A stretch of DNA of 35,656 bases from Bacteroides timonensis (lineage in GTDB: Bacteria > Bacteroidota > Bacteroidia > Bacteroidales > Bacteroidaceae): assembly GCF_000513195.1 (NCBI RefSeq), contig NZ_CBVI010000013.1:1-35656 (forward strand), read 5' to 3'. Within the stretch, counting starts at the first letter, position 1. Every line of letters starts with the position of its first letter. Positions 4,587 through 20,046 of the stretch are shown piece after piece. Made by a program: the position numbers and the translations under genes. Below the pieces are notes generated by a model that was not told where the DNA came from, did not search any database, and was given only the letters and a program-made list of their open reading frames with translations.

Positions 4587-5822
4587 TTATCCCAAGAATG
4601 AGATCAATACACCCGCAGCTACCGCTGAACCGATAACACCGGAAATATTACTGGACATACAGTAATTCAGCACATGGTTCTTCGGATCATACTTCGTAGC
4701 AATCTCATTGCACACACGGCTTGCCATAGGCACAGCACTCAGTCCTGTTGCACCGATCAGCGGATTGATCTTCTTCTTGCTGAACAGGTTGAACAGCTTC
4801 ACAAAGAAGATACCACCCGTAATGGAAAGTGCAAATGCAAGGAAACCACCTATAACAATACCGATGGTCGTCCAGTTCAGGAATGCTTCGCTTGTCATAG
4901 TTGCGCCTACACTCAGTCCTAAGAAGATGGTTGCCGCATTCATAATGCTGTTGGCAGCCGCATCAAACAAGCGGCTGGTGTCCGCACCGATTTCCTTAAT
5001 CAGGTTACCGAACATCAACATACCGATCAAAGGCACTGCCGTCGGTACAAAGAGAGCGACAATTGTAGTTACCGCTATCGGGAAAATGATTTTCAGTACA
5101 CGCAGATTCTTGATTTCCGTCTTCGAAGGATAGAGTTTCTCCTGCTCCTTCATATTGATCATCAATTCCTTCTTAGAGCAGAACAGCTTCACTACCAACG
5201 GAATAATCACCGGCACCAACGCCATGTAAGAATAGGCGGCAATAGCAATCGGACCCAACAAATGCGGAGCCAGTTTAATAGTAGTGAAAATAGCCGTCGG
5301 GCCGTCAGCACCACCAATGATACCGAGAGCACCTGCTTCCTGCGGTGTGAAACCCATCATCACCGCACACAACAGCACCGTAAAGATACCCAACTGTGCT
5401 GCCGCTCCAAAGATAGAGAGACGCAGGTTACGAAGCATCGGTCCGAAGTCCGTCAAAGCACCCACCCCCATAAAGATGATGGGCGGCAAGAAACCTGTCT
5501 TAATCAACATATAGTAGATGAAGTTCATCAATCCCAAGTCGTGTGCAATTTCATGCAACGGCATTTCCCAGATGTTCTTTAATACCCCATTTACCATTAC
5601 CATTCCGTTTTCATCCGCCTGAATGACACCCATTTCGCCACCGGGAAAGTTAGCGATGAGTACACCAAAGGCGATGGGCACCAGCAATAACGGTTCGTAA
5701 TGCTTCTTGATACCCAAGTACAGCAGAATGAAAGCAATGGCATACATCACCAGAAACGACGGGTCGGCAATAATGTTGCTGAACGCCGTCATATCATAGA
5801 GTTTTGCAAATATTTCTTCCAT
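4587..5822 (-). CDS. oadB: Oxaloacetate decarboxylase-type beta subunit (sodium-pumping carboxybiotin decarboxylase)
   Basis: This integral membrane subunit decarboxylates carboxybiotin and couples the reaction to sodium export. The 411-residue protein is almost entirely hydrophobic helices. It contains the signature GGADGPTAIF (Asp173), which in Klebsiella OadB holds the essential sodium/proton-binding aspartate, and a conserved late segment GLSAVPMASRVCNEIATKYDP. It begins 6 bp after the alpha subunit stop and is the last gene of the gamma-alpha-beta operon. The same fold serves methylmalonyl-CoA and glutaconyl-CoA decarboxylases, so the substrate rests on the alpha subunit. Confidence 0.92.
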   Translation of the reverse strand: MEEIFAKLYDMTAFSNIIADPSFLVMYAIAFILLYLGIKKHYEPLLLVPIAFGVLIANFPGGEMGVIQADENGMVMVNGVLKNIWEMPLHEIAHDLGLMNFIYYMLIKTGFLPPIIFMGVGALTDFGPMLRNLRLSIFGAAAQLGIFTVLLCAVMMGFTPQEAGALGIIGGADGPTAIFTTIKLAPHLLGPIAIAAYSYMALVPVIIPLVVKLFCSKKELMINMKEQEKLYPSKTEIKNLRVLKIIFPIAVTTIVALFVPTAVPLIGMLMFGNLIKEIGADTSRLFDAAANSIMNAATIFLGLSVGATMTSEAFLNWTTIGIVIGGFLAFALSITGGIFFVKLFNLFSKKKINPLIGATGLSAVPMASRVCNEIATKYDPKNHVLNYCMSSNISGVIGSAVAAGVLISFLG

Positions 5823-5828
5823 CGCTGT

Positions 5829-7664
5829 TTATCCTATCTTCATTAATACATCATCTTCTGATACAGTGTCACCCGGAGTGGCGCAAATGGCCGTCACCGT
5901 TCCGTCAAAGTCGGCACGGATGGCATTGTATGTCTTCATAGCTTCAATGTAGCAAAGCAAGTCGCCTTTCTTCACCTTGTCGCCCACTTTCACCGGAGTC
6001 TCTTGTGCATTCTTCGTCAGGAAGAACTTACCTTCCAACGGAGCGATCACATCCTGACCTTCGCCTACGGGAGCTTCCACTTTCGCAGTAGCATTTGCCG
6101 GTAGGTCAATATCACCATAAGCCACCGTTACGCGATAAGCCTGTCCATCCACCTGTACGGTTAGCGTCTTCGGTTTAGCGTCATCCAACGGGGACTTATT
6201 AAGTTCTGCCTTCCGTTTTTCCACGTCTGCCAGGAAGTCTTCTTTCGCCTTGCCACTCTTGTATGCTTCGTATTGTGCCGGATGCATGGCATATTCGAAG
6301 AGTTCTTCATCATCTTCTCCCAGATCCCATTTATTCTCTTTCATCATCTTGCGATACTTGTCGAGCGCATCCGGATAATTATCCTGTGGATTTCCGGTGA
6401 AGAACTTACGGCCTTCACGTTCCGCTTTCTCTACGAGTTCAGGAGCCAGCGTACCCGGCAGTTTACCTGCCTTGCCCAACAGCATATCCCAGATATCATC
6501 AGCAATCATACCCCAACGTTCCTTGCCTTTTTCCATGGCAATCACGTTCATCATCGCCAGATTCTTAACATACTGACTGAATGGAGTTACCAACGGGGGA
6601 TAACCTACACGCGGCCATACATAAGCTACTTCGTTAAACAGTTTGATAAGCAACTGATCCTGCGTCATAAACGGCAAGTTACGTTTTGCCTTATATTTAT
6701 TGATGGATTCCAGATTGGACTCCAAGTCGGCCATAAGGCTACCCATCATACCACCCGGAAGTCCCGGACCGATCAGCAGGGAATTCATCAAGCGGTTCTT
6801 CGGACTGATGTACAAACCGAGGAAATCATCCATAAATTCCTGAATCAATGCACGCACCTTCATGTATGCTTCCATATTCACCTCAGGAACCTGGAAACCT
6901 GCATCTTTCAGCATTGCCTGCACACTCAGCAAGTCAGCGTGTCCTGTACCCCATGACAACGGTTCCATACCCACGTCAATATAATCGCAACCAGCCTCAC
7001 AAACTTCGAGGATGCTTGCCATATTAAAACCAGGACCTGCATGGCTATGATACTGAATAGGAATTTCAGGATGTGCAGCCTTGATATTTGCTACGATCTT
7101 ACCCAATGATACCGGGCGTCCGATACCTGCCATATCCTTGATACAGATTTCATCGGCACCTGCCTTGATGAGTGTTAACGCCATATCCGTATAGTATTCT
7201 ACTGTATGAATGGGCGAATGGGTGATACAGAGCGAGCACTGGGATATCATTCCGGCTTCCTTAGCGTAAGTGATGGAAGGAATAATGTTACGGGTATCGT
7301 TCAATCCGCAGAATGTGCGTGTGATATCTGTCCCCTGTACTTTCTTCACTTTGTAAAACAGCCTACGTACATCCGCAGGCACAGGACTCATGCGCAGACC
7401 ATTCAGTGCACGGTCCAACATGTGAGTTTGTATACCGGCTTCGTGGAACGGTTTCGTCCATGCACGTACAGCTTTATTAGGATTTTCACCAAACAATAGA
7501 TTTACCTGTTCAAAACCTCCGCCATTGGTTTCTACGCGGGCAAAACAGCCCATTTCAACAATAGCTGGAGCAACCTTTACCAGCTGGTCTACGCGGGGCA
7601 CATATTTTCCGGCACTCTGCCACATGTCCCTGAACACCAAGCTGAACTTAATTTCTTTTTTCAT
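5829..7664 (-). CDS. oadA: Oxaloacetate decarboxylase-type alpha subunit with C-terminal biotinyl domain
   Basis: This is a cytoplasmic carboxyltransferase that moves a carboxyl group from a 2-oxoacid (oxaloacetate in the named family) to biotin. Residues 1-300 form the TIM barrel: a probable metal-binding Asp13 in FRDMWQS, a Lys in CIKDMAG (Lys176) and the His pair Y-H-S-H (206/208). A PYC/OadA-type middle domain follows, and the C-terminal 80 residues are a biotinyl domain with EAMKT, biotin on Lys577. The barrel is divergent: the usual HTHDTSG-like segment reads HSHAGPG, and the N-terminal metal motif differs from the common LRDAHQS. The carboxyltransferase assignment is firm, but the exact oxoacid is less so. 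It is operonic with gamma and beta. Confidence 0.88.
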   Translation of the reverse strand: MKKEIKFSLVFRDMWQSAGKYVPRVDQLVKVAPAIVEMGCFARVETNGGGFEQVNLLFGENPNKAVRAWTKPFHEAGIQTHMLDRALNGLRMSPVPADVRRLFYKVKKVQGTDITRTFCGLNDTRNIIPSITYAKEAGMISQCSLCITHSPIHTVEYYTDMALTLIKAGADEICIKDMAGIGRPVSLGKIVANIKAAHPEIPIQYHSHAGPGFNMASILEVCEAGCDYIDVGMEPLSWGTGHADLLSVQAMLKDAGFQVPEVNMEAYMKVRALIQEFMDDFLGLYISPKNRLMNSLLIGPGLPGGMMGSLMADLESNLESINKYKAKRNLPFMTQDQLLIKLFNEVAYVWPRVGYPPLVTPFSQYVKNLAMMNVIAMEKGKERWGMIADDIWDMLLGKAGKLPGTLAPELVEKAEREGRKFFTGNPQDNYPDALDKYRKMMKENKWDLGEDDEELFEYAMHPAQYEAYKSGKAKEDFLADVEKRKAELNKSPLDDAKPKTLTVQVDGQAYRVTVAYGDIDLPANATAKVEAPVGEGQDVIAPLEGKFFLTKNAQETPVKVGDKVKKGDLLCYIEAMKTYNAIRADFDGTVTAICATPGDTVSEDDVLMKIG

Positions 7665-9331: not shown

Positions 9332-10393
9332 TCAAATATCATTTTGAATACAAAATAGTATTAGAAGCTGGATAGCTGCATTTACATCTCTAATATCACA
9401 CATTTCCACAGGCGTATGCATATAACGGCAAGGAATACCAAGTGATATTGTACGAATTCCTTCATGTACAAGCTGTATTCGAGATATGTTAGTTCCTCCT
9501 GTGGCATGAGGTCTTGCAGACATTTGGTAAGGTATATTATATTCCTTGGCAAGCATTTCCAGTTTTCTACTTAAAGCAATATCACAATCGACATTTAATG
9601 GAATGACAACGCCAGCCCCTAAAAGTATCTTCCCGTATTTGCTTTGAGAGCAGTCCGGCACATCTGTAGCAAAATCAAGATCTACAGTAACAGCAATATC
9701 CGGTTTTATACGATATCCCGCTACAGCAGCTCCTCTACTTCCAACTTCTTCTTGTACAGTTGCAACACCAATAATAGTATTAGGTAATGTATGTTCTTGG
9801 GCGAGTTGTTTTATTACTTTTATAATGGCATACACACCAAGCTTGTTATCCAATCCCCTACCAGATATTCTGTTTTTCCCAAGCCATTGCAGATTAGGCA
9901 TTAAAACAACTGTATCACCAACTGAGATATTTAATTTCACCTCATCAACATCCAGACCTGTGTCTATCCATAGCTGATTCAGTTTCAATGTATGTTTTCG
10001 ATCATCAGAGGACATCAAATGAATAGGTTTTTTGCCGATTACTCCCAGCACACGTTCACCACTACGGGTAACAATCTCCACTTGTGACCCTGGCACACAT
10101 TGTTCGTCAATACCACCATTACATCGCACATACAAGAAACCGCTTTCATCAATGTGTATTACTTGAAAACCTATTTCATCGGCATGTGCCTCAACCATTA
10201 TTTTTTTACCATTCCCACTACCAGATAACACACCATAAGCATTACCCATCACATCTGTATACTGTTTATTTACATTTTTTTCTATTTGATTAAGGTAGCA
10301 TTCGCATACCTCTTTTTCGAATCCGGAGACTCCGGATGCTTGACATAATGAATTTAATAATGAAATATCATTGAAAATTTTATCCTGTAACAT
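9332..10393 (-). CDS. M42-family metalloaminopeptidase in the RiPP operon
   Basis: This is a cytosolic di-metal peptidase of the M42 family (glutamyl aminopeptidase/deblocking type, usually forming large tetrahedral particles) that removes residues from peptide N-termini. The 353-residue length is typical. Expected metal and catalytic residues are visible: His70 in VEAHADEIGF, Asp182 in GRGLDNKLG, Glu215/Glu216 in QEEVGSRGA, Asp238/240 in VTVDLDFATD and His326 in RYMHTPVE. It starts 12 bp after the preceding radical SAM gene, making it the last gene of the peptide-modification operon. The context suggests trimming of the modified precursor, analogous in role to peptidases in PQQ or mycofactocin loci; this is inference. 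Confidence 0.9.
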   Translation of the reverse strand: MLQDKIFNDISLLNSLCQASGVSGFEKEVCECYLNQIEKNVNKQYTDVMGNAYGVLSGSGNGKKIMVEAHADEIGFQVIHIDESGFLYVRCNGGIDEQCVPGSQVEIVTRSGERVLGVIGKKPIHLMSSDDRKHTLKLNQLWIDTGLDVDEVKLNISVGDTVVLMPNLQWLGKNRISGRGLDNKLGVYAIIKVIKQLAQEHTLPNTIIGVATVQEEVGSRGAAVAGYRIKPDIAVTVDLDFATDVPDCSQSKYGKILLGAGVVIPLNVDCDIALSRKLEMLAKEYNIPYQMSARPHATGGTNISRIQLVHEGIRTISLGIPCRYMHTPVEMCDIRDVNAAIQLLILFCIQNDI

Positions 10394-10405
10394 AACTCTT
10401 TGAAT

Positions 10406-11788
10406 TTAATGAAGTTGAAAATACTTTTTAATGACACATTCTTTCAATATCTTTGCCATTTCACAAAATCGAGAACACGCGCTATATACATCACCATTTT
10501 CATTAAAATTATATACAGCACACATATCACAAAAGTTGTACAAATCACAGCTCTTGCATGTGGCAAATTCATCTATATTAATTGCCCGTAACTTATTAGC
10601 TTGTTCACTCAACCATATATTTTTAATGGAAGATGAAGCAATGTTTCCCATTTTCATGCCATTCCATCCCGGACAGGGATATACGGTTCCATCCGAATCT
10701 ATACAAAGTGAAGCCGAGAGGATATCACACATTGTTCGACGACGGGCATATCTCTTCGACAAAGCTTCCGCCAGCGTATTTGAGTTAGCTATAGCTTCAA
10801 TAAATTTAGGTTGGGAATCAATACGAAATTGAAGCATATCCTTTGTTTGCTCTAAATTGATTCTAACAGACAAGTTATCATTTTTGCCATTGCATTCAGC
10901 CATCATCATAAAGTCAAAATACACATCTACACCTAAACTTTGAGCATATTTATGGAGACTGCGTACTGTAGAAACATTTTGGGACATCACCGGACAAGAA
11001 ATCATGGCAGGAATATCATTTTTCACCAACATTTCTATATTCCGTTTTGTCCTTTCAAATGAGCCTTTACGTCGTGTTATTGATTCATGAATTTGTTCAT
11101 CCGTTGAATAAAGTGAAACTTGTACATTAAATACATCAAGTTCCTTTATCTTCTTTAAATTGGCTTCGGTTAAGGAAAGCAGATTGCTTTGTAGTAAAAT
11201 CATTAAATTTAGTCGCTTACATTCCTCTAAAATTTCGAAGAGATTGGCATGTAACAAAATTTCGCCTCCTGAGAATACCACTTTAAGCCCATTCATTGCA
11301 CGAAATTGCTGAAGGATTTCAATAACTTGTTCAACACTCAAGGCATTTCCCTTATCTTTTTTTTCATTGGGAAGATAGCAATGAATGCAATGTTCGTTAC
11401 AAACATCCGTCAATTCTATTTGCAGATTGATTAAACAAGGGACTTCGCTTTCATTTTTTATTCCGATGAATGGGTAATCGCCAAACCGATGCTCTATTTC
11501 TGCTTTATGAGCATAAGAAAAACGTCTTTCCAAAGTCACAGGAATGCCTATAATATCTATCAGCCATACTTTATGTAACTGAAGCATAGTTTTCTCTATT
11601 TCTACAGAATCAACTAAAATTTCATATATAGAGGATAGAGTATTGTGGATTCCGATGCTTTCCAGCCACTCAAATTTATCTTTTGGCAAAAAAGCCCGCA
11701 TATGGCTCACCTGATTCTCCAAATAATAGCCATCTGAATAATTACGCACAAAGGTGTAGGGATTCAATCTAAAACTTAGTTCTTTCAT
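10406..11788 (-). CDS. Radical SAM/SPASM peptide maturase with N-terminal recognition-like domain
   Basis: This is a putative peptide-modifying radical SAM enzyme of 460 residues. Residues 1-110 resemble the small PqqD-like/RRE region that grips precursor leaders (inference from pattern). The radical SAM core begins at about 120 with C130-x3-C134-x2-C137 (CNEHCIHC) and the GGE motif at 174-176. The C-terminal SPASM region carries Cys354, 362, 372, then C411-x2-C414-x5-C420-x2-C423, and Cys438/442, enough for two auxiliary Fe-S clusters. The gene starts 2 bp after the YcaO stop, implying translational coupling, and 12 bp precedes the M42 gene. The reaction on the peptide (thioether, C-C crosslink, epimerisation or other) cannot be inferred. 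Confidence 0.88.
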   Translation of the reverse strand: MKELSFRLNPYTFVRNYSDGYYLENQVSHMRAFLPKDKFEWLESIGIHNTLSSIYEILVDSVEIEKTMLQLHKVWLIDIIGIPVTLERRFSYAHKAEIEHRFGDYPFIGIKNESEVPCLINLQIELTDVCNEHCIHCYLPNEKKDKGNALSVEQVIEILQQFRAMNGLKVVFSGGEILLHANLFEILEECKRLNLMILLQSNLLSLTEANLKKIKELDVFNVQVSLYSTDEQIHESITRRKGSFERTKRNIEMLVKNDIPAMISCPVMSQNVSTVRSLHKYAQSLGVDVYFDFMMMAECNGKNDNLSVRINLEQTKDMLQFRIDSQPKFIEAIANSNTLAEALSKRYARRRTMCDILSASLCIDSDGTVYPCPGWNGMKMGNIASSSIKNIWLSEQANKLRAINIDEFATCKSCDLYNFCDMCAVYNFNENGDVYSACSRFCEMAKILKECVIKKYFQLH

Positions 11789-11790
11789 AA

Positions 11791-13494
11791 TTATTGGAAT
11801 AACTCACTTAAGGAATCTTGTGAAGGCATATGCTTAGCCATAGCTGTTTGACAAGCAGTTTCTATTTCTTGCAACAAAGGATAAAGACAACCTATAGATA
11901 AATGACATCGTTCACAATTGAAGCACATGGGTGTATCAATTGCCTCCAAAGCCTTTTCCGGATGTGCTAAAAATGATGATGCAATTTTATAACTATTGGC
12001 TGTTTTATCTGCCACATATTCCCCTCGCAAGATGTGTATCATTTGTTCATAATAGGGACGTATCTCTCTTTTTTGTGACAGGCAGTAACTTTTATAGGTC
12101 TCCAAGCACTCTACAGCCTCTTCTTTATGTCCCAATCTTACATGAAGAAGCATAAGTATAATGTGACGGTTAACCGTATTGTTGGGGTGATTGTTTCGAG
12201 TGAATAGCTCTATTGCTTCCTTGTCAAGTAGACTCAGATATTCAATGGTTTCACGACACTCAGAATCATTAAGCCACCTGAATCGAAAGAGAGGATTAAC
12301 CCTGTTCTCAGTAAGTTGCATGTGACAGACACGTCTATTGAGATTGCAAAATGTATGGTCAATCTCCGACAATCCCGGTACCACTAAATGAAGGGCAGGA
12401 AATCCGAGAAATGAATTGTCACGTATATATATATCGTATCCTTTCTTTATCAGCCACTGACATATATTATGCAGGTCTTCACAGAAATTCTTGCCAACGG
12501 GTATAGTAGTATGTCCCAAATATGAATAAGAAGGGAGACCGGTAAAGAAATTATCATGCTGCCGTCCCCTTCCATACATTAGACTTCGTTTAAACTCATT
12601 GAATGCATCTAATCGTTCACAGGCATTGACATCATTCTCAAAGGTCAAGGTATCTGCTGTATATCCTTGAAATATTTCAGTGAAACATCGTTCAAGAGCT
12701 ATTTCGGGATTGAGGTCGGCTCCCAGATGAAGTATGTACTTTGATTTGTCTTTATTATAGAGTAAAAGTCCAATTACAGGAAATCCTTCCCCTAATGAAT
12801 AATCCTTAATAGAATAATCCATTCCATAAACATTCCGTAGATCCTCTAATCGCTCAATCACCTTTGTTCCATCAAATACAGACCTTGGAACCTCAGGAGG
12901 AACAATTTTTCTTTTATACATTTCCTGTATGCAATACCGTTCGAAGACTTCACAAAACCCTTGAACAAGTGCCTCTTCACGGATATTGCCGGCACACATA
13001 CCATTCGAACCGTTTATCCAGCGGATGAGAGAATAAGGTACTTCTTGGACTTTACCACTGTTTACATGATAGAAAGGAAGCGATACCCCCTCTAGAGTAG
13101 CTGAACATAATCCTGTAGACGAAAGCACTCTTGGCACATATTTTTTAATCGCCGCTATTGCATCATCATGGTTTAATTCATAAGCTTTTTCATCAGGGAA
13201 AAAGCGACAAGATGAGTTGATGTTTGCGGGATTTGGGTAAACGATTACTCTGTTCTGAAAACGCTCCATAAATTCAGCATAACCGCTTGCTAAAGCATAT
13301 TCTTGATTCATTCCTTTCCCATTAGTACCTATCGAAGAATCTTCCCCATGCGAAAGATAAATTCGGCATGAGAAGAAATCACGACCATCACCTAAGCTTT
13401 TTTCCTTTACGGGGAGAACATGTGTTGCAATAATATTTCTAATGCGGTTTACCGTGCCTGTCGGTGTATCAGCTTTATAAGGTTTCTTTATCAT
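11791..13494 (-). CDS. YcaO-domain protein with C-terminal helical region and Cys cluster
   Basis: YcaO proteins use ATP to activate peptide backbone amides, giving azolines (from Cys/Ser/Thr), thioamides or amidines. The 567-residue protein shows the family ATP/Mg signatures in order: GTNGKGMNQEYALASGYAEF then MER (about 56-78; Glu74, Glu77), NGSNGMCAGN with EEALVQGFCEVFER (161-186), and LNPEIALERCFTEIFQG (261-277). The C-terminal part from about 410 is helical with possible TPR-like repeats, as in E. coli YcaO, and ends with C524-x2-C527-x2-C530-x5-C536, which looks like a metal or Fe-S site. No E1-like or dehydrogenase partner is present. It overlaps the preceding radical SAM gene by 20 nt. 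Confidence 0.88.
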   Translation of the reverse strand: MIKKPYKADTPTGTVNRIRNIIATHVLPVKEKSLGDGRDFFSCRIYLSHGEDSSIGTNGKGMNQEYALASGYAEFMERFQNRVIVYPNPANINSSCRFFPDEKAYELNHDDAIAAIKKYVPRVLSSTGLCSATLEGVSLPFYHVNSGKVQEVPYSLIRWINGSNGMCAGNIREEALVQGFCEVFERYCIQEMYKRKIVPPEVPRSVFDGTKVIERLEDLRNVYGMDYSIKDYSLGEGFPVIGLLLYNKDKSKYILHLGADLNPEIALERCFTEIFQGYTADTLTFENDVNACERLDAFNEFKRSLMYGRGRQHDNFFTGLPSYSYLGHTTIPVGKNFCEDLHNICQWLIKKGYDIYIRDNSFLGFPALHLVVPGLSEIDHTFCNLNRRVCHMQLTENRVNPLFRFRWLNDSECRETIEYLSLLDKEAIELFTRNNHPNNTVNRHIILMLLHVRLGHKEEAVECLETYKSYCLSQKREIRPYYEQMIHILRGEYVADKTANSYKIASSFLAHPEKALEAIDTPMCFNCERCHLSIGCLYPLLQEIETACQTAMAKHMPSQDSLSELFQ

Positions 13495-14824
13495 CTTTTT
13501 CTTTAATCAGTGAAATTATTTGTCTTTGATAATTAGATTTCCAATCCGGGCAACAGGTTTCTGTTCCATGCTTTTTATCAGTAAACAGCGCATTATGGGG
13601 ACAGCCGCCATTGCACAGTGGCACAAGAATACAGTCTTTACAAATATCAGATTGCAGTGGAGTCCATTGTTGCCACTGAGTGTACCATAAAGGCTTAAAT
13701 ACAGATTGCCCTGCTATATGCCCCATTACCCATTTCCGATTACCCACAGTGTCAAGACATTTATAAATCTCTCCGCCCGCACCAATCACTATATCCCCCT
13801 CACGCAAACAGCCACCCAAAGGAGCCGCGTGCGGAAATCTGTATTGCCATAAATCTAAACTATGAGCATGTTGGATGAGCCGCCATTCAACTTCGGCAAA
13901 CTCCGCTTCTGTATAAAGTGTATCCGATATGGCGTCTGGAGTATAGTTGTAGTCTATTGTTCTACAAAACGACAACCCCACCTGCCCGCATAGCTTGCTT
14001 TTCGCAATAAAGTCAAGCAACTTCGGTATTTCCTCAGCATTATTTTTATCTATAGTCATGCGTATAGTAACCCATGCTCCAGTATCTACCAACAATTCTA
14101 TATTGTGCCAAATGGTCGAAAATGAAGATTCTCCATTCTTTAAGGGCCGGCGTACATCATGAGTTGCAGCTAAACCATCTATGGTAATAATATATCTTTT
14201 CACTTGCAATTGAGATACCATTTCATGGCAACGTGCTTCATTCAACGCAAAACCATTTGTCGTTATATCTGCTTTATATTCAATCTGATGACTATTACAA
14301 AATTCCATCAATGCGAGCGACAACTCTTTCAATCTGTAATAAACAAGTAATGGTTCACCGCCAAACCAAGTTACGCGTAACTTCTTGCATGTTCCTACTT
14401 GTGTCCTCAAAAAGTCTATGATATGACTCATTGTGGCTTTCTGTATATTGTTTTTCATTTTTGCGCCCTCAAAACAATATACGCAACCCATTTGACAGTT
14501 ATTTGTCAGCAGTATTGTCAAATCTATATAAGAGAGGTTTTTTTTACCTTGAGCAAAGAGTTTCTCCCACTCTGTTTTCTCATTAATATGGCCTGTGACT
14601 AAAAATCCTAATTCAAACAATTGCCTTGCGATATTCCTCTCTAATAGATGTGGCTGTTTCAATTCACCACATTCCGCTAAAATTGCATTACGTGATGAGG
14701 TGTTAAAGACAACCATTCGATTTTTGTCTATCCTTATTCTATCATTCCATACCGACCATTTTAGATCTTGTAAATGGAAATCACCAATAGAAGCAAGCCT
14801 ATTAGTTCGTAAAAGTATTTTCAT
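13475..14824 (-). CDS. Radical SAM/SPASM peptide maturase (anSME-like)
   Basis: This 449-residue putative peptide-modifying enzyme has an N-terminal 95-residue extension (with a typical FNTSSRNAIL strand-helix segment and GFLVTGHINEKTEW), common in peptide maturases of this class. The core has C110-x3-C114-x2-C117 (CQMGCVYC) and GGEP at 155-158. A canonical SPASM tail has Cys339, Cys356, C395-x2-C398-x5-C404-x3-C408 and Cys424/425. It overlaps the YcaO gene by 20 nt and follows the 380-aa radical SAM gene after 83 bp, on the same strand. Sulfatase maturases share the fold, but no sulfatase is nearby and the operon context points to a small-peptide substrate. Confidence 0.88.
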   Translation of the reverse strand: MKILLRTNRLASIGDFHLQDLKWSVWNDRIRIDKNRMVVFNTSSRNAILAECGELKQPHLLERNIARQLFELGFLVTGHINEKTEWEKLFAQGKKNLSYIDLTILLTNNCQMGCVYCFEGAKMKNNIQKATMSHIIDFLRTQVGTCKKLRVTWFGGEPLLVYYRLKELSLALMEFCNSHQIEYKADITTNGFALNEARCHEMVSQLQVKRYIITIDGLAATHDVRRPLKNGESSFSTIWHNIELLVDTGAWVTIRMTIDKNNAEEIPKLLDFIAKSKLCGQVGLSFCRTIDYNYTPDAISDTLYTEAEFAEVEWRLIQHAHSLDLWQYRFPHAAPLGGCLREGDIVIGAGGEIYKCLDTVGNRKWVMGHIAGQSVFKPLWYTQWQQWTPLQSDICKDCILVPLCNGGCPHNALFTDKKHGTETCCPDWKSNYQRQIISLIKEKDDKETL

Positions 14825-14907
14825 TAATATTGATAAATTTCTTTAATAAAAGAAGATGATTATATGCCTTGCCCCTATGTGAGAAAAGTACAAATAGCAT
14901 TTTTTCA

Positions 14908-16050
14908 TTATTTATGCACAAAGATTTTATTAATTATATCACGTTTTTCTTCAAGACTTTTCCCTTTTAACATATATAGATAGCCTCCTTTTGATTCAAT
15001 CCATTTCACAATATGTTCCCAATACATCATATTGCTTTTGCATCTATACGGATAACCAAGCATAAACCTCTCTCGAAGACAACCTCCATGACATGTAGGT
15101 TCAAATTTACAGAGATGGCATTTTTCAGGAACAGGAGCCTTTAAAACGAGTAATTCTCGGGCATCAGATGCTGCAAATTCTTCGGGTGTTTGAGTGAGAA
15201 AGTTTCCTATTACAGACTCTGGCACATCGAACTCAGCACATGAGAAAACATCCCCACCAGGACTAAATGCCATATAACGCTGATGGCAGTTTTCTTCTCG
15301 TAAACAGAGCGAAGGAACCCCTAAGAGTAAATCAGCCACCAATTTTATTATATCCGTATTATCAGCTGGTTTTGAATCATTTGCCCAACAATCAAAGAAT
15401 TGTATCATAGCTCCAGTAAATTCTTCATCACTTACATACATGGGTGACGAAAGTGTGTCAGAATCGTTAATTGGAAAAACACGTGCCAGCCTGACATTCA
15501 TGTTTCGCTGTTTGTAAAAATCATATATATCATGGATTCTATGCAAATTATCCTTAGTGATTAAATTTATGGCACCACACCTAATACCTGCAGCTAAAGC
15601 ATCATTGATATTCTTTACGACAATTTCTGTAGACACTTTCCCTGACGGAAAAGTGCGATAACAGCTAAATAAATCTACGCTTACACCGACAAAACCATCA
15701 AAGTACTTCTGAATCAATGGATAAATATCAGATTTAAGTAATATTGCATTCGTTTGTATACCATGGGACACTTTTATCCCTTTATCTGCAAATAGCCTAT
15801 TTGCAGATTCTATTACAGCAGGCAATCTTTTAGCAAAAAGTAAAGGTTCACCGCCATGCCAACATATTGTAAGGCTTTTAGCACCTACAATTAAAGCGTA
15901 TTTGTATACGAATAAAAGACCACAATAAATTTCTTCATCTGACATCTCGCCTCCTTGGGCATAATTATCGCGTCCATAGCAATATTGGCATGCCAAATTG
16001 CATTTCAGTGTGACTTTAAACGTCACATATATATTTTTTAAAGTTAGCAT
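14908..16050 (-). CDS. Radical SAM/SPASM peptide maturase, first enzyme of the RiPP operon
   Basis: This 380-residue radical SAM enzyme is encoded directly after the precursor peptide (24 bp gap). The cluster motif C17-x3-C21-x2-C24 (CNLACQYC) lies near the N-terminus, so unlike its two operon partners it has no leader-recognition extension. GGEP is at 66-69. The SPASM part shows Cys249, 255, 271, then C311-x2-C314-x5-C320-x3-C324 and Cys337. Position next to the precursor suggests it acts early, perhaps relying on the RRE-like domain of a partner protein. Reaction type is unknown. Confidence 0.88.
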   Translation of the reverse strand: MLTLKNIYVTFKVTLKCNLACQYCYGRDNYAQGGEMSDEEIYCGLLFVYKYALIVGAKSLTICWHGGEPLLFAKRLPAVIESANRLFADKGIKVSHGIQTNAILLKSDIYPLIQKYFDGFVGVSVDLFSCYRTFPSGKVSTEIVVKNINDALAAGIRCGAINLITKDNLHRIHDIYDFYKQRNMNVRLARVFPINDSDTLSSPMYVSDEEFTGAMIQFFDCWANDSKPADNTDIIKLVADLLLGVPSLCLREENCHQRYMAFSPGGDVFSCAEFDVPESVIGNFLTQTPEEFAASDARELLVLKAPVPEKCHLCKFEPTCHGGCLRERFMLGYPYRCKSNMMYWEHIVKWIESKGGYLYMLKGKSLEEKRDIINKIFVHK

Positions 16051-16074
16051 AACGATGAACCATTTTTTTAATCT

Positions 16075-16188
16075 TTAGTCGAGCGGTGCAGGGTGACCTT
16101 CATTACAATGATCACACCATTCTGCTTGAGTTTCGCTTGCATCGAGACGTACTTCGAGTTCAGCGTAAAGACTTTCATTCTGTGCCAT
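16075..16188 (-). CDS. Candidate RiPP precursor peptide, 37 aa, with C-terminal WCDHC motif
   Basis: This short ORF starts ATG at 16188 and stops TAA at 16075, heading an operon of three radical SAM enzymes, a YcaO and a peptidase. The first about 23 residues are acidic and probably helical (segment SLYAELEVRLDASETQAE), as expected for a leader. The tail WCDHCNEGHPAPLD is rich in modifiable or metal-binding residues: Trp24, Cys25, His27, Cys28, His32. It lacks the GG leader motif of common Bacteroidetes precursors. The gap to the first enzyme is 24 bp and the upstream region has an exact -7 box. Role as substrate is inferred from size, position and composition; I do not recognise the family. 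Confidence 0.75.
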   Translation of the reverse strand: MAQNESLYAELEVRLDASETQAEWCDHCNEGHPAPLD

Positions 16189-16253
16189 AATGGTAAAAAA
16201 TAAAATGTTATTCCTACTCTTTTCTGGTTTTTCGGATTCCACCTATCTTCACA

Positions 16254-16281: not shown

Positions 16282-16289
16282 CAAAGTTA
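16282..16289 (-). promoter_or_regulatory. Promoter -7 box of the RiPP operon
   Basis: The minus strand reads TAACTTTG, an exact TAnnTTTG match; its first three bases are the TAA stop of the SH3-domain gene. The start point would be near 16275, leaving an 87-nt leader before the precursor ATG. No good -33 TTTG is seen, so the promoter may be weak or activator-dependent. Confidence 0.5.
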
Positions 16290-17432
16290 ACGCCGCCTAG
16301 CACAGCCATTGCCGTCCACATCCCACGGATGACCGCTTTCATCCTGCCAATCACCTGTAATAGGGTTGCGTGTCAAGAATGTAGGATGGCCGTTACTGTC
16401 ATATATCACCCTATCACCTCTAGCTGTTTCTTGCGAGGTACCCGAAGTGGGCGGCAACGGTGTTTGTGAGGTATCCTGCACCGAAGCATGGCTTTCTCCA
16501 TTGGCAACTGCGCCTACCAGCAGCAAGATGAGAAAACCTCCTATCAGTACACCTGCCGTTTCCCATACCATAGCCAAGAAGCCACCACACACAAGTATCA
16601 CCAACAAGACAGAGCGTAATGCTCCTAGCAGTCCTCGCGAGGTACGTACCACCATCGCTATCCACAATACACCGATTATTCCCAAAACAATGAACCATAA
16701 TTTGAAACTAAGTAGCAGCGAAGCAACGGATAATCCCGCAACAAGCATCAGTGGATACCCCAACAGCGTACCCAAACATCCGGGAAATAATTCGGACATG
16801 ATAGGACGGAAAACTGCAAACTGCATGCCTAATATTGCTATCAGTAACACAAAACCTAAAGCGGCATAAAGCCAGCCCACTTCGTTAGGATCGCCAAACC
16901 AAACCATTTCACCATGCCCAGGCGCCATTATTCCAGCCACAAACAATAATTCGGCCACACCCATAAGCACCAATAGCGTGCTACATAACGGAGTACGTGC
17001 CAACAGCAGCAATAGTATGCTTAATCCCAAAATAACATAAGGCATTTTCTCATACAAGAATATATAAGTCTGATAACCGAACAGTTTGTCGTCGTCAATG
17101 TCCGGTACGGCACACTCGTCAGATGGAATGTAGGCCTTAAGATAACGGGCACTAACATAACCTTTCTTGCCATTATACGTAACCTCAGCCCAATTATCCG
17201 TACAGGAAAGTACCTCAACCAAGTCACCGTTCATAATTGAACCGACCTGTAGGGCCTGAGATGATGGAGCTTCGCGTAAAACAAGACTGGTGTTTACAGT
17301 TACTTCGTATGAGCCCGGAGTAAGAGGCACCTGTGAGGCATTTGCCGCCTGCAACAAAGCGATCGAAAAAAGTGCTGACACCGTAACCCATATCTTGAAT
17401 AGATGCGGGAGAAATTCAAGTCGAATAGCCAT
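16287..17432 (-). CDS. Multi-pass membrane protein with extracytoplasmic SH3-like domain
   Basis: This 381-residue protein has a signal peptide (about 1-32, LPHLFKIWVTVSALFSIALL then a small-residue cleavage region), a bacterial SH3-type domain (about 41-100; NTSLVLREAPSSQALQVGSI, GKKGYVSARYLKAY) and about seven hydrophobic helices between 131 and 309. It ends in a polar, Gly/Asp-rich tail (DVDGNGCARRR). SH3b domains usually bind peptidoglycan or proteins in the periplasm; here one is joined to a membrane domain of unknown function. Its stop codon overlaps the RiPP promoter, but nothing indicates a shared function. A structured region with its own promoter lies immediately upstream. Confidence 0.72.
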   Translation of the reverse strand: MAIRLEFLPHLFKIWVTVSALFSIALLQAANASQVPLTPGSYEVTVNTSLVLREAPSSQALQVGSIMNGDLVEVLSCTDNWAEVTYNGKKGYVSARYLKAYIPSDECAVPDIDDDKLFGYQTYIFLYEKMPYVILGLSILLLLLARTPLCSTLLVLMGVAELLFVAGIMAPGHGEMVWFGDPNEVGWLYAALGFVLLIAILGMQFAVFRPIMSELFPGCLGTLLGYPLMLVAGLSVASLLLSFKLWFIVLGIIGVLWIAMVVRTSRGLLGALRSVLLVILVCGGFLAMVWETAGVLIGGFLILLLVGAVANGESHASVQDTSQTPLPPTSGTSQETARGDRVIYDSNGHPTFLTRNPITGDWQDESGHPWDVDGNGCARRR

Positions 17433-18136: not shown

Positions 18137-18949
18137 TCAATACAAATTGGCTATATCCCTAAAATAATCATATAAAAATATCGGAAATGAGTTCAAGACA
18201 GCCACTCTACAATCTTGCGTATTTACATACTTAGTCAATTGCTTTTCATATATGGTGCTCTGAGCGACATTTTCTTTGGAAATCGGTATGGCAGCCACAT
18301 CCATACAAATAAAGTTCGCCTTTCGGATATTCATATCGGTCAAATGCAACCAATTTTCTTTAGCTGTCTGCCGTTTCAACAACTTCTTTTCCTCTTTTTC
18401 ATTTTTATTACCTGATATAAGCAGATGTTCAAAAGACTCATAAAAAGAAAAATCACGAGCCAAGGCTTTAAAATTATGACATTCCTCACGAGTAACGTAA
18501 TAACTCTGATAATCCTTATCCGGCAGTTGCTTGGTATAGAATACAGATTCAACCATGGGGTAATTGATATACAATTTTCCATTCTCGGTTTCATCGTTAA
18601 AATACTCCAGCATTTCACCGATATGTCGGTTATTCTCTTCCAATGTCAATCGGGATTCTTGAAAATCATAATCGAAAAACAAGAATATTTCAGAAACATT
18701 CACTTCCAGAATGTCAGCAAGAGTATCATCCCCGTTCTCTTGCAATATGTCATTAAGTATAGTTACCGTATTTCCGCTTGCTGTAACATTTTCAAAGACA
18801 TCATACCCCTTTAACTTTGAATATAAAGAATAAATATTACTGTTATAAGTACATACGAACGGTTCTGTTTCTTTGGCGAAAAACAAATGTTTCAAAGTCT
18901 CAAAAAGACGAGGTCCACATTTCTTACCTTCAAAAATAAATAGTATCAT
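18137..18949 (-). CDS. TOPRIM-like protein, partner of the upstream ATPase (putative defence effector)
   Basis: This 270-residue protein has features of a TOPRIM-type nuclease domain: an N-terminal strand with Glu7 in FIFEGKKCGPRLFETLKHLF, and a D-x-D pair (Asp93, Asp95) in SEIFLFFDYDFQESR. The later segment YINYPMVESVF is like the NP-x-x-E region of RloB/AbiL-type proteins. The rest is unrecognised. Its start overlaps the ATPase stop by 4 bp, so the two proteins are made together. ATPase plus TOPRIM-like protein is the architecture of several anti-phage modules (OLD-like, AbiL, PARIS); membership in any one cannot be shown here. Confidence 0.65.
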   Translation of the reverse strand: MILFIFEGKKCGPRLFETLKHLFFAKETEPFVCTYNSNIYSLYSKLKGYDVFENVTASGNTVTILNDILQENGDDTLADILEVNVSEIFLFFDYDFQESRLTLEENNRHIGEMLEYFNDETENGKLYINYPMVESVFYTKQLPDKDYQSYYVTREECHNFKALARDFSFYESFEHLLISGNKNEKEEKKLLKRQTAKENWLHLTDMNIRKANFICMDVAAIPISKENVAQSTIYEKQLTKYVNTQDCRVAVLNSFPIFLYDYFRDIANLY

Positions 18950-20046
18950 ACCTTAAAAGTATTACCCCGAAAAAGCTTTTCGATATTGTGCCCGAATCTC
19001 AATTCTTTATCCGTACAATCACACAAAGGTTTAATCTTATTTTCATTCAAGATAAAATTACAGTCCGGACGCAGCAGGTCATTGGTCATCAGATAAGTGT
19101 TATGTGAAGACGTAAATATCTGGCAATCCATATTGAACAACATTTTGCACACTTCAAAGGCTAAACGGAAATGATAGAATGCATCAAATTCGTCAATAAA
19201 GACAAATGACGCTTCACTCATTCGCTTCATCCAAAAATAAAGTAATTGCAGTGACTTGGTTCCCGTAGATGCAACCAAGTAGAAAGGTATTTCCGAACCG
19301 CCTATATCACAAAGTATTTGTTTATCGGCAGACGTATGTGCAACAAGCCGGAACGTTTGCCCACTGACTCTCCGCAGGAAATTTGAGAAATCTTCAAGCA
19401 ATCCGTTTGCAATGATAAACTCATCAAGATTCATTGCAGTTGTTTCCAGACCGATAAATTCCCTTATATCAAGATTCCGGAACCAAAGCATCGAGTTGAC
19501 AAACTTACTGAGTTTTATTAAGTAGTGTTCTTTGGCCAACGGGTAGGAAGTCAATAAGAAATTGACTATTGACACATTATTTGCATTGCTTCCGAGGTTA
19601 TTCTCTATGGTTTCTTCCATAGGAAACTGTTGTTTGTCTATGCAAAAAGAGCCATTCTTCCGTTCAAAAACTAAGTTATCGTCAACCCGAAGTGATTCAG
19701 ACACTAATATACCATCGGCATTTTTGGAATAAATATAGACAACTATCTCGTTCCCAAATCTAAATGTATATTCGAACTCAACCACCCCCTCTTTCTTTCC
19801 GGCATAAATGAAGTTTATATAGTAATCTATCTTTTTCCACTTGGGAGATAGATGGTTTTCTATGTCAAACAAGGCCAAACTGAAATTCGTTTTACCCGAA
19901 CCATTGGGACCATATATGATACCATTCTTTATTATACCGTCTTTTATGGCATTCTTATTGAACTCATAATTTGCAGGAGTTGACAAATCCCACTCTATGC
20001 GGTCTGCAAATCCACGATAGTTGGTAACGGCAAATTTTACTATCAT
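18946..20046 (-). CDS. SMC/ABC-type AAA family ATPase of a two-gene module
   Basis: This 366-residue ATPase of the RecF/OLD-like class has Walker A GPNGSGKT (46-53), an ABC-signature-like STGTKS at 260-265, Walker B FVFIDEFD (281-288) and a switch His315 in TSSHNTYLM. The N-terminus (MIVKFAVTNYRGF) is the typical first strand of this class. The insert between the ATPase halves is short, so it is not a full SMC or Rad50. It is followed, with 4-bp overlap, by the TOPRIM-like gene. An exact -7 box lies 28-35 bp upstream. Likely role: sensing or activating component of a defence pair; this is inference from architecture. Confidence 0.8.
   Translation of the reverse strand: MIVKFAVTNYRGFADRIEWDLSTPANYEFNKNAIKDGIIKNGIIYGPNGSGKTNFSLALFDIENHLSPKWKKIDYYINFIYAGKKEGVVEFEYTFRFGNEIVVYIYSKNADGILVSESLRVDDNLVFERKNGSFCIDKQQFPMEETIENNLGSNANNVSIVNFLLTSYPLAKEHYLIKLSKFVNSMLWFRNLDIREFIGLETTAMNLDEFIIANGLLEDFSNFLRRVSGQTFRLVAHTSADKQILCDIGGSEIPFYLVASTGTKSLQLLYFWMKRMSEASFVFIDEFDAFYHFRLAFEVCKMLFNMDCQIFTSSHNTYLMTNDLLRPDCNFILNENKIKPLCDCTDKELRFGHNIEKLFRGNTFKV

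What the first reader, a model, noticed from the sequence alone, without database searches (positions are those of the whole stretch)
9332..16188. Unfamiliar RiPP operon: one small peptide, three radical SAM/SPASM enzymes, a YcaO and an M42 aminopeptidase
Six minus-strand genes are packed with gaps of 24, 83, -20, 2 and 12 bp, so they form one transcriptional unit. Each radical SAM gene has an intact CX3CX2C motif and SPASM cysteines; the YcaO has all ATP-binding signatures. Combining three different SPASM maturases and a YcaO on one 37-residue precursor implies at least two chemistries (radical crosslinking or epimerisation plus backbone cyclisation or thioamidation) on the same peptide. I do not recognise a characterised RiPP class with this gene set.
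Basis: partly seen in the sequence, partly recalled or inferred. Interest (0 to 1): 0.92.

Follow-up and report, generated by a model that had tools for sequence, protein, structure and literature searches.

The report
Radical-enzyme peptide operon, one gene lost
A Bacteroides genome carries an operon that is predicted to turn a 37-residue peptide into a small modified molecule with three radical enzymes and a YcaO enzyme, and it has likely lost a fourth, B12-binding radical enzyme that all six relatives found still encode.

Summary
In detail: precursor, three radical SAM (rSAM) genes, YcaO and M42 peptidase form one minus-strand unit with exactly the stated gaps. It is conserved: six other Bacteroidales genomes hold precursor, rSAM_A, rSAM_B, YcaO and rSAM_C in the same order; M42 follows in four of the six. 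The precursor is a real, constrained family (32 aligned rows; core WCDxCxxG, mostly followed by HP; pN about 0.07 against pS 0.43-0.49 to the two closest relatives). The main new point: all six relatives carry a fourth radical SAM gene, a B12-binding type, between rSAM_A and rSAM_B. The window has 83 bp there, in which a frame matches the last 20 or so residues of that enzyme, so this copy is most likely a deletion derivative. All seven loci have a DUF805b RNA match 18-26 nt before the precursor start. My literature searches found no description of this gene set. Best reading: an uncharacterised RiPP pathway making one conserved product, possibly cofactor- or metal-binding-like and not a bacteriocin. 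The chemistry of each enzyme, and whether this copy is active, is inferred or open.

The parts
16211..16245 (-). DUF805b RNA motif (Rfam RF02914), predicted cis-regulatory leader, 22 nt before the precursor ATG
   Evidence: 44.6 bits against gathering 35.6; same place in all six relatives; the one match of three over the cut-off in the genome
16075..16188 (-). precursor peptide gene, 37 aa, predicted leader about 1-23, predicted core WCDHCNEGHPAPLD
14908..16050 (-). rSAM_A: radical SAM enzyme with SPASM-type cysteines, 380 aa, nearest models DynA and anaerobic sulfatase maturase
14802..14909 (-). likely remnant of a B12-binding radical SAM gene (about 1.26 kb shorter than in L007 and L008); the tail frame overlaps the rSAM_B start by 23 nt as in L008
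   Evidence: gene absent elsewhere in the genome
13475..14824 (-). rSAM_B: radical SAM/SPASM enzyme, 449 aa, nearest models TIGR04463, CefB, Clo7bot
11791..13494 (-). YcaO protein, 567 aa, with four C-terminal cysteines (524, 527, 530, 536) invariant in 21 aligned proteins
10406..11788 (-). rSAM_C: radical SAM/SPASM enzyme, 460 aa, N-terminal part aligned with SuiB/SkfB in a predicted model
9332..10393 (-). M42 family aminopeptidase, 353 aa, predicted leader-trimming peptidase

Best explanation
The window holds a minus-strand operon of a 37-residue peptide gene, three radical SAM genes, a YcaO gene and an M42 peptidase gene that is predicted to make a modified ribosomal peptide (RiPP), and it is likely a deletion derivative of an operon whose six relatives found here all encode a fourth, B12-binding radical SAM enzyme. 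Shown: gene order, conservation, purifying selection on the precursor, the near-invariant WCDxC core, the DUF805b match, no match to the B12-type protein in the genome, and a frame that matches its end. Inferred: the N-terminal part of the peptide (about residues 1-23, with the conserved RLDxSE) is the leader, read by recognition-like N-terminal domains on rSAM_C and perhaps rSAM_B. Inferred: the radical SAM enzymes cross-link or otherwise oxidise the W-C-D-x-C segment; the YcaO activates a backbone amide near the CxxC with ATP (azoline or amidine type); in relatives the B12 enzyme adds a methyl group; the M42 peptidase then trims the leader from the N-terminus. Inferred: because the core is nearly invariant and no exporter or immunity gene was seen in the operon, the product is one conserved small molecule acting inside the cell or leaving by a general route, more like PQQ or mycofactocin in logic than like a bacteriocin.
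Confidence: 0.72

Rival explanations
1. The operon makes a bacteriocin-like antimicrobial RiPP that is exported by a housekeeping transporter.
For: A small Cys-containing precursor and patchy distribution (3 of 158 genus genomes with the window's own counted) are usual for bacteriocins; Bacteroidales RiPP clusters with rSAM, YcaO and PCAT exporters are described (PMC10352776, section 3.2).
Against: No transporter or immunity gene in the operon; among the neighbour proteins that I scanned only an SNF symporter after the L012 operon is a transporter (not all neighbours were scanned). The window precursor has no GG dipeptide and no NCBIfam match. The core hardly varies between genera, which I recall as untypical of bacteriocins.
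Confidence: 0.2
2. The window copy is a dead or dying operon after loss of the B12 radical SAM gene.
For: An internal deletion of about 1.26 kb in one enzyme gene, no match elsewhere in the genome, and rSAM_B and rSAM_C somewhat more diverged than in L007 and L008.
Against: The other six genes are intact; the precursor keeps all twelve conserved positions; a 96% identical full-length YcaO stands in a cluster of 65 contigs, and no listed B12-rSAM cluster has its longest contig length, so the loss may be old and tolerated.
Confidence: 0.25
3. The YcaO is the RimO accessory factor of ribosomal protein S12 methylthiolation and stands beside the radical SAM genes by chance.
For: Its best NCBIfam hit is the S12 accessory YcaO (155.7 bits) and its best solved relative is E. 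coli YcaO.
Against: 155.7 bits is far below the curated cut-off of 700; the gene is found in only 3 of 158 genus genomes, and in all six near-clade loci it lies in the same operon.
Confidence: 0.04

Closest known systems
Bacteroidales rSAM + YcaO clusters BGC6-8 with ItfB-type amidine YcaO (PMC10352776)
   Same: Bacteroidales; radical SAM plus YcaO on one small precursor; C-terminal amidine proposed for BGC8 and, as that paper reports, shown for ItfB
   Different: That paper gives them PCAT exporters and mostly GG-type leaders; the window operon has neither, has three (in relatives four) radical SAM enzymes and an M42 peptidase, and a WCDxC core
Bottromycin pathway
   Same: YcaO chemistry and an aminopeptidase (BotP, M17) on one peptide (passages of PMC10885120 and PMC8442711); B12-binding radical SAM methyltransferases (recalled)
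   Different: Two YcaO proteins and a follower in place of a leader (same passages); no SPASM maturases (recalled)
Streptamidine family (PMC8442711)
   Same: Standalone YcaO acting on a small peptide
   Different: Actinobacteria and Firmicutes; 'radical SAM' and 'Bacteroid' occur 0 times in that paper's text
PQQ and mycofactocin pathways
   Same: SPASM radical SAM plus peptidase making one conserved peptide-derived molecule (recalled)
   Different: One radical SAM maturase with a PqqD/MftB partner, no YcaO (recalled)
Sister YcaO systems in L013, L014, L016, L026
   Same: YcaO of the wider branch (31-32% identity), one radical SAM gene beside it (Pfam-checked in L014 and L016, motif only in L013 and L026), precursor candidate with a C-terminal CxxC; M42 in L014; DUF805b in L016
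   Different: No further radical SAM gene seen; the precursor ends in another Cys-rich tail, without WCD

Membership tests
RiPP biosynthetic cluster (general) | Small genetically encoded precursor beside modifying enzymes, conserved with them | tested here: met
   six of six near loci plus the window
RiPP biosynthetic cluster (general) | RiPP recognition element on a modifying enzyme | tested here: inconclusive
   rSAM_C model aligned over its N-terminus with SuiB/SkfB; rSAM_B model too weak
RiPP biosynthetic cluster (general) | Enzymes modify the precursor | not testable with these tools
   needs expression and mass spectrometry
Thioamidated RiPPs (YcaO-TfuA) | TfuA partner | tested here: not met
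   PF07812: 0 of 1, own genome; one of 14 control genomes rings
Azol(in)e RiPPs (LAP/TOMM) | E1-like/Ocin-ThiF partner in the operon | tested here: not met
   no ThiF domain in the six window proteins; a ThiF gene lies upstream in L011
S12 accessory YcaO (NF040716) | Curated score 700 | tested here: not met
   155.7 bits
TIGR04463 radical SAM maturases (rSAM_B) | Curated score 525 | tested here: not met
   233.8 bits
DynA dynobactin maturases (rSAM_A) | Curated score 450 | tested here: not met
   138.9 bits
Bottromycin | Two YcaO proteins | tested here: not met
   one YcaO match in the genome
Bacteroidales GG-leader/PCAT RiPPs (BGC6-8) | GG motif before the core | tested here: not met
   window precursor has no GG and no NCBIfam match; a GG stands after the CxxC in L009, L010 and P0248 and before the Cys in P0258
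Bacteroidales GG-leader/PCAT RiPPs (BGC6-8) | PCAT exporter in the cluster | tested here: not met
   no transporter domain in the six operon proteins
ItfB-type amidine-forming YcaO | Sequence clustering with ItfB | not tested
   ItfB sequence was not at hand

The most novel reading that the evidence does not exclude
A new RiPP class in Bacteroidales in which four radical SAM enzymes of four different kinds (three SPASM, one B12-binding) and a YcaO all act on one near-invariant WCDxCxxG core, giving a conserved peptide-derived cofactor or metal-binding molecule; the window lineage dropped the B12 enzyme and makes a natural congener without that step.
Probability: 0.42. Interest if true: 0.88.

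Novelty: new variant of a known kind. Interest (0 to 1): 0.74.

Why it matters
I recall no known peptide that receives this many distinct radical reactions plus YcaO chemistry in so short a core, so the product may hold bonds not seen together before. The near-invariance of the core across genera points to one conserved function and not to an arms-race toxin. The window copy, which lacks one enzyme, and the intact relatives form a natural pair for finding what the B12 enzyme adds.

Tried and rejected
Plasmid origin: no DNA match and only distant YcaO matches on plasmids, 29 records, none covering 80% of the query. DUF805b as a specific RiPP leader: rejected, it matches in 262 of 393 genomes of the order (176 over the cut-off) and stands before unlike ORFs. 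DUF805b in print: none found. Gene set in print: searches listed no paper whose title or abstract describes it; only open-licence papers are held, and I opened four. Defence role of the enzymes: PADLOC gives weak viperin-type matches for the three rSAM proteins, none for YcaO and M42. Remnant by DNA alone: weak (simple base shuffles), so I rest on the protein-level test. In fold listings, families not shown are not excluded. Sigma-70 promoters and terminators: at shuffle level, no use. Wider draws for more operons gave none beyond those known: searches found again the genomes of L009-L011 and L007, plus one distant YcaO. Not done: ItfB comparison, other strains of the species, a tree of the YcaO branch.

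Choices behind counts: one search used 93 homologues (five loci, and listed proteins of P0122-P0215 longer than 430 aa; L010 left out because its mechanical ORF runs past the gene); the shuffle control used three of them. One search took ATG ORFs of 25-110 aa on the YcaO strand within 7 kb and dropped those overlapping longer ORFs by more than a third, which removes the L026 precursor candidate. One search shows 15 sites that fit a hand-written pattern, among loci L027-L061. One search used three relatives of six (two for M42). Searches scanned neighbours chosen by me. One search left out the window's own cluster P0002. Of the 25 precursor hits, P0258, P0265 and P0266 look damaged and P0248 contains the L009 peptide; all were kept in the 32 rows. 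Script 22 found no locus files and was followed by 23; script 38 printed nothing and was repeated. Structure jobs asked for before they were done. Two earlier hand-ins of this report were sent back, one for checking and one for its form.
Full report
Observation. The 37-residue peptide ends EWCDHCNEGHPAPLD. Pfam finds Radical_SAM in three proteins, YcaO and Peptidase_M42. NCBIfam family models stay below their cut-offs among the rows shown: rSAM_A to DynA (138.9 of 450 bits) and sulfatase maturase, rSAM_B to TIGR04463 (233.8 of 525), rSAM_C to AhbD, PqqE and AlbA types, YcaO to the S12 accessory model (155.7 of 700); the domain models TIGR00702 and TIGR04085 are reached. The YcaO is the only one found in the 7.0 Mb genome. 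The nearest named YcaO, 96% identical, is labelled Bacteroides cellulosilyticus, and two same-genus genomes with the YcaO appear to be those of B. faecalis and Bacteroides sp. 519; the species is otherwise not told.

Conservation. A scan of the genome collection (84,980 species by its description) with a YcaO alignment gave 20 loci. Six form a near clade (50-73% identity): L007 Candidatus Cryptobacteroides faecigallinarum, L008 Bacteroides faecalis, L009, L010 and L011 uncultured Muribaculaceae, L012 Bacteroides sp. 519. All six hold precursor, rSAM_A, rSAM_B, YcaO, rSAM_C in this order; M42 follows in L007, L008, L011 and L012 and is not found in L009 or L010. The operon is rare. YcaO matches: 3 of 158 genomes of the genus, the window's own counted; 4 of 337 in a draw from the family of L010, namely the genomes of L009-L011 and one distant YcaO; 1 of 299 in a draw from the family of L007, namely L007 itself; 3 of 399 in a draw from the window's family, own and two at 30-35%. 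rSAM_B: 2 of 393 in the order, own and one at 29%. The neighbour genes that I scanned differ between loci.

Precursor. The seven locus precursors share M, Q, RL, SE, WCD, C and G. A profile search found 25 proteins, some damaged or overlapping the loci; in 32 aligned rows six positions are invariant (M1 Q3 R14 E19 C25 D26) and six more reach 90% (L15 D16 S18 W24 C28 G31). Most rows go on as GHPAPLD or GHP with two last residues fewer; L009, L010 and P0248 have GGAAPLD. Against L007 and L008 the precursor has pN 0.068 and 0.071 and pS 0.493 and 0.433, on only 37 codons. In a screen of small intergenic ORFs at 22 YcaO loci every ORF with CxxC near its end was a precursor candidate: six of six near loci and three of 16 distant ones. 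The distant ones (L013, L014, L016, and L026 which the filter dropped) end in a different Cys-rich tail with CxxC; I infer that CxxC is the shared element of this YcaO branch.

The missing fourth radical SAM. Between rSAM_A and rSAM_B all six relatives have an ORF of 450-457 aa (in L010 it is the tail of a longer mechanical ORF, matched at 62%). The L008 protein has B12-binding and Radical_SAM domains, most listed homologues bear both in their precomputed Pfam column, and CX3CX2C is invariant in nine aligned sequences. The window has 83 bp there. Its genome has no match to the L008 protein, while the genomes of the six relatives have (alone lacked a control). The frame ending at 14802 overlaps the rSAM_B start by 23 nt, as the L008 gene does. 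Its end aligns with the C-terminus of the relatives (YNHLLLLKKFININEN against YNHLRSLKKYINTHEN in L007), score 59 against a shuffle maximum of 44 (0 of 500), and the best match lies in the C-terminal 45 residues of 84 of 93 homologues. DNA alone is weak and the start of the gene is not recognised significantly. I conclude that an internal deletion is likely. In database clusters, 22 of 97 near YcaO clusters have exactly the longest-contig length of one of 99 B12-rSAM clusters, against mean 0.6 and maximum 3 with shifted lengths and 0 of 22 for distant YcaO; the 96% cluster P0003 shares none, which hints that the loss is shared there, no more. Against a healthy copy: rSAM_B and rSAM_C of the window are 4-7 points further from L007 and L008 than those are from each other.

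Leader RNA. Rfam DUF805b lies at 16211-16245 and before all six relatives' precursors, 18-26 nt from the ATG (18 in L012, whose ORF has a second ATG 21 nt on). It is common in the order, and in 13 of 15 sites shown the first ATG ORF starts 21-28 nt after the GAGTAG end, so it is a general leader and supports the chosen start codon.

Mechanism (inferred). rSAM_C's predicted model (pLDDT 74.6) aligns from its first residues with SuiB and SkfB, which I recall as bearing N-terminal recognition domains; rSAM_B's model is too weak to tell. I propose leader binding, radical chemistry on the WCDxC segment, ATP-dependent backbone chemistry by YcaO, methylation by the B12 enzyme in relatives, and M42 trimming. 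No TfuA is found in the genome and no E1 partner in the operon, which weakly favours azoline or amidine chemistry over thioamidation. No exporter or immunity gene was seen in the operon, and among the neighbours scanned only an SNF symporter after the L012 operon is a transporter.

Known systems. PMC10352776 (abstract, passages and section 3.2 read) describes Bacteroidales rSAM + YcaO clusters with PCAT and GG-type leaders, which differ from this one. PMC8442711, PMC8120280 and PMC10885120 were seen as passages. Searches listed no paper on this gene set in the held open-licence library. I rate it a new variant of a known kind, the RiPP.

Noticed in passing
window 16211-16245 and loci L027-L061: DUF805b RNA matches in 262 of 393 genomes of the order (176 over the cut-off); in 13 of 15 sites shown the first ATG ORF starts 21-28 nt after it, before unlike ORFs: looks like a general translational or leader element, unexplained.
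   Followed up: partly
window 18137-20046: Two-gene candidate defence pair near the operon: PADLOC matches PDC-M12A (454 bits) and PDC-M12B (233 bits).
   Followed up: no
L013, L014, L016, L026: Sister systems: distant YcaO, one radical SAM gene and a 44-46 aa precursor candidate with a CxxC-containing Cys-rich tail ending near VG; L014 also has M42, L016 also has DUF805b.
   Followed up: partly
L022 2944-15562: Three YcaO matches in one locus with two ORFs bearing a CX3CX2C or like motif (4766-5722, 5719-6660, not domain-scanned) and a 58 aa ORF with Cys.
   Followed up: no
L011 3901-5913: A ThiF protein and an SH3-domain protein stand directly upstream of the precursor; the window also has an SH3-domain protein upstream (16287-17432).
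   Followed up: no
window 11791-13494 (YcaO residues 524-536): Four cysteines (CxxCxxC and C536) invariant in 21 aligned YcaO proteins, perhaps a metal or Fe-S site.
   Followed up: no
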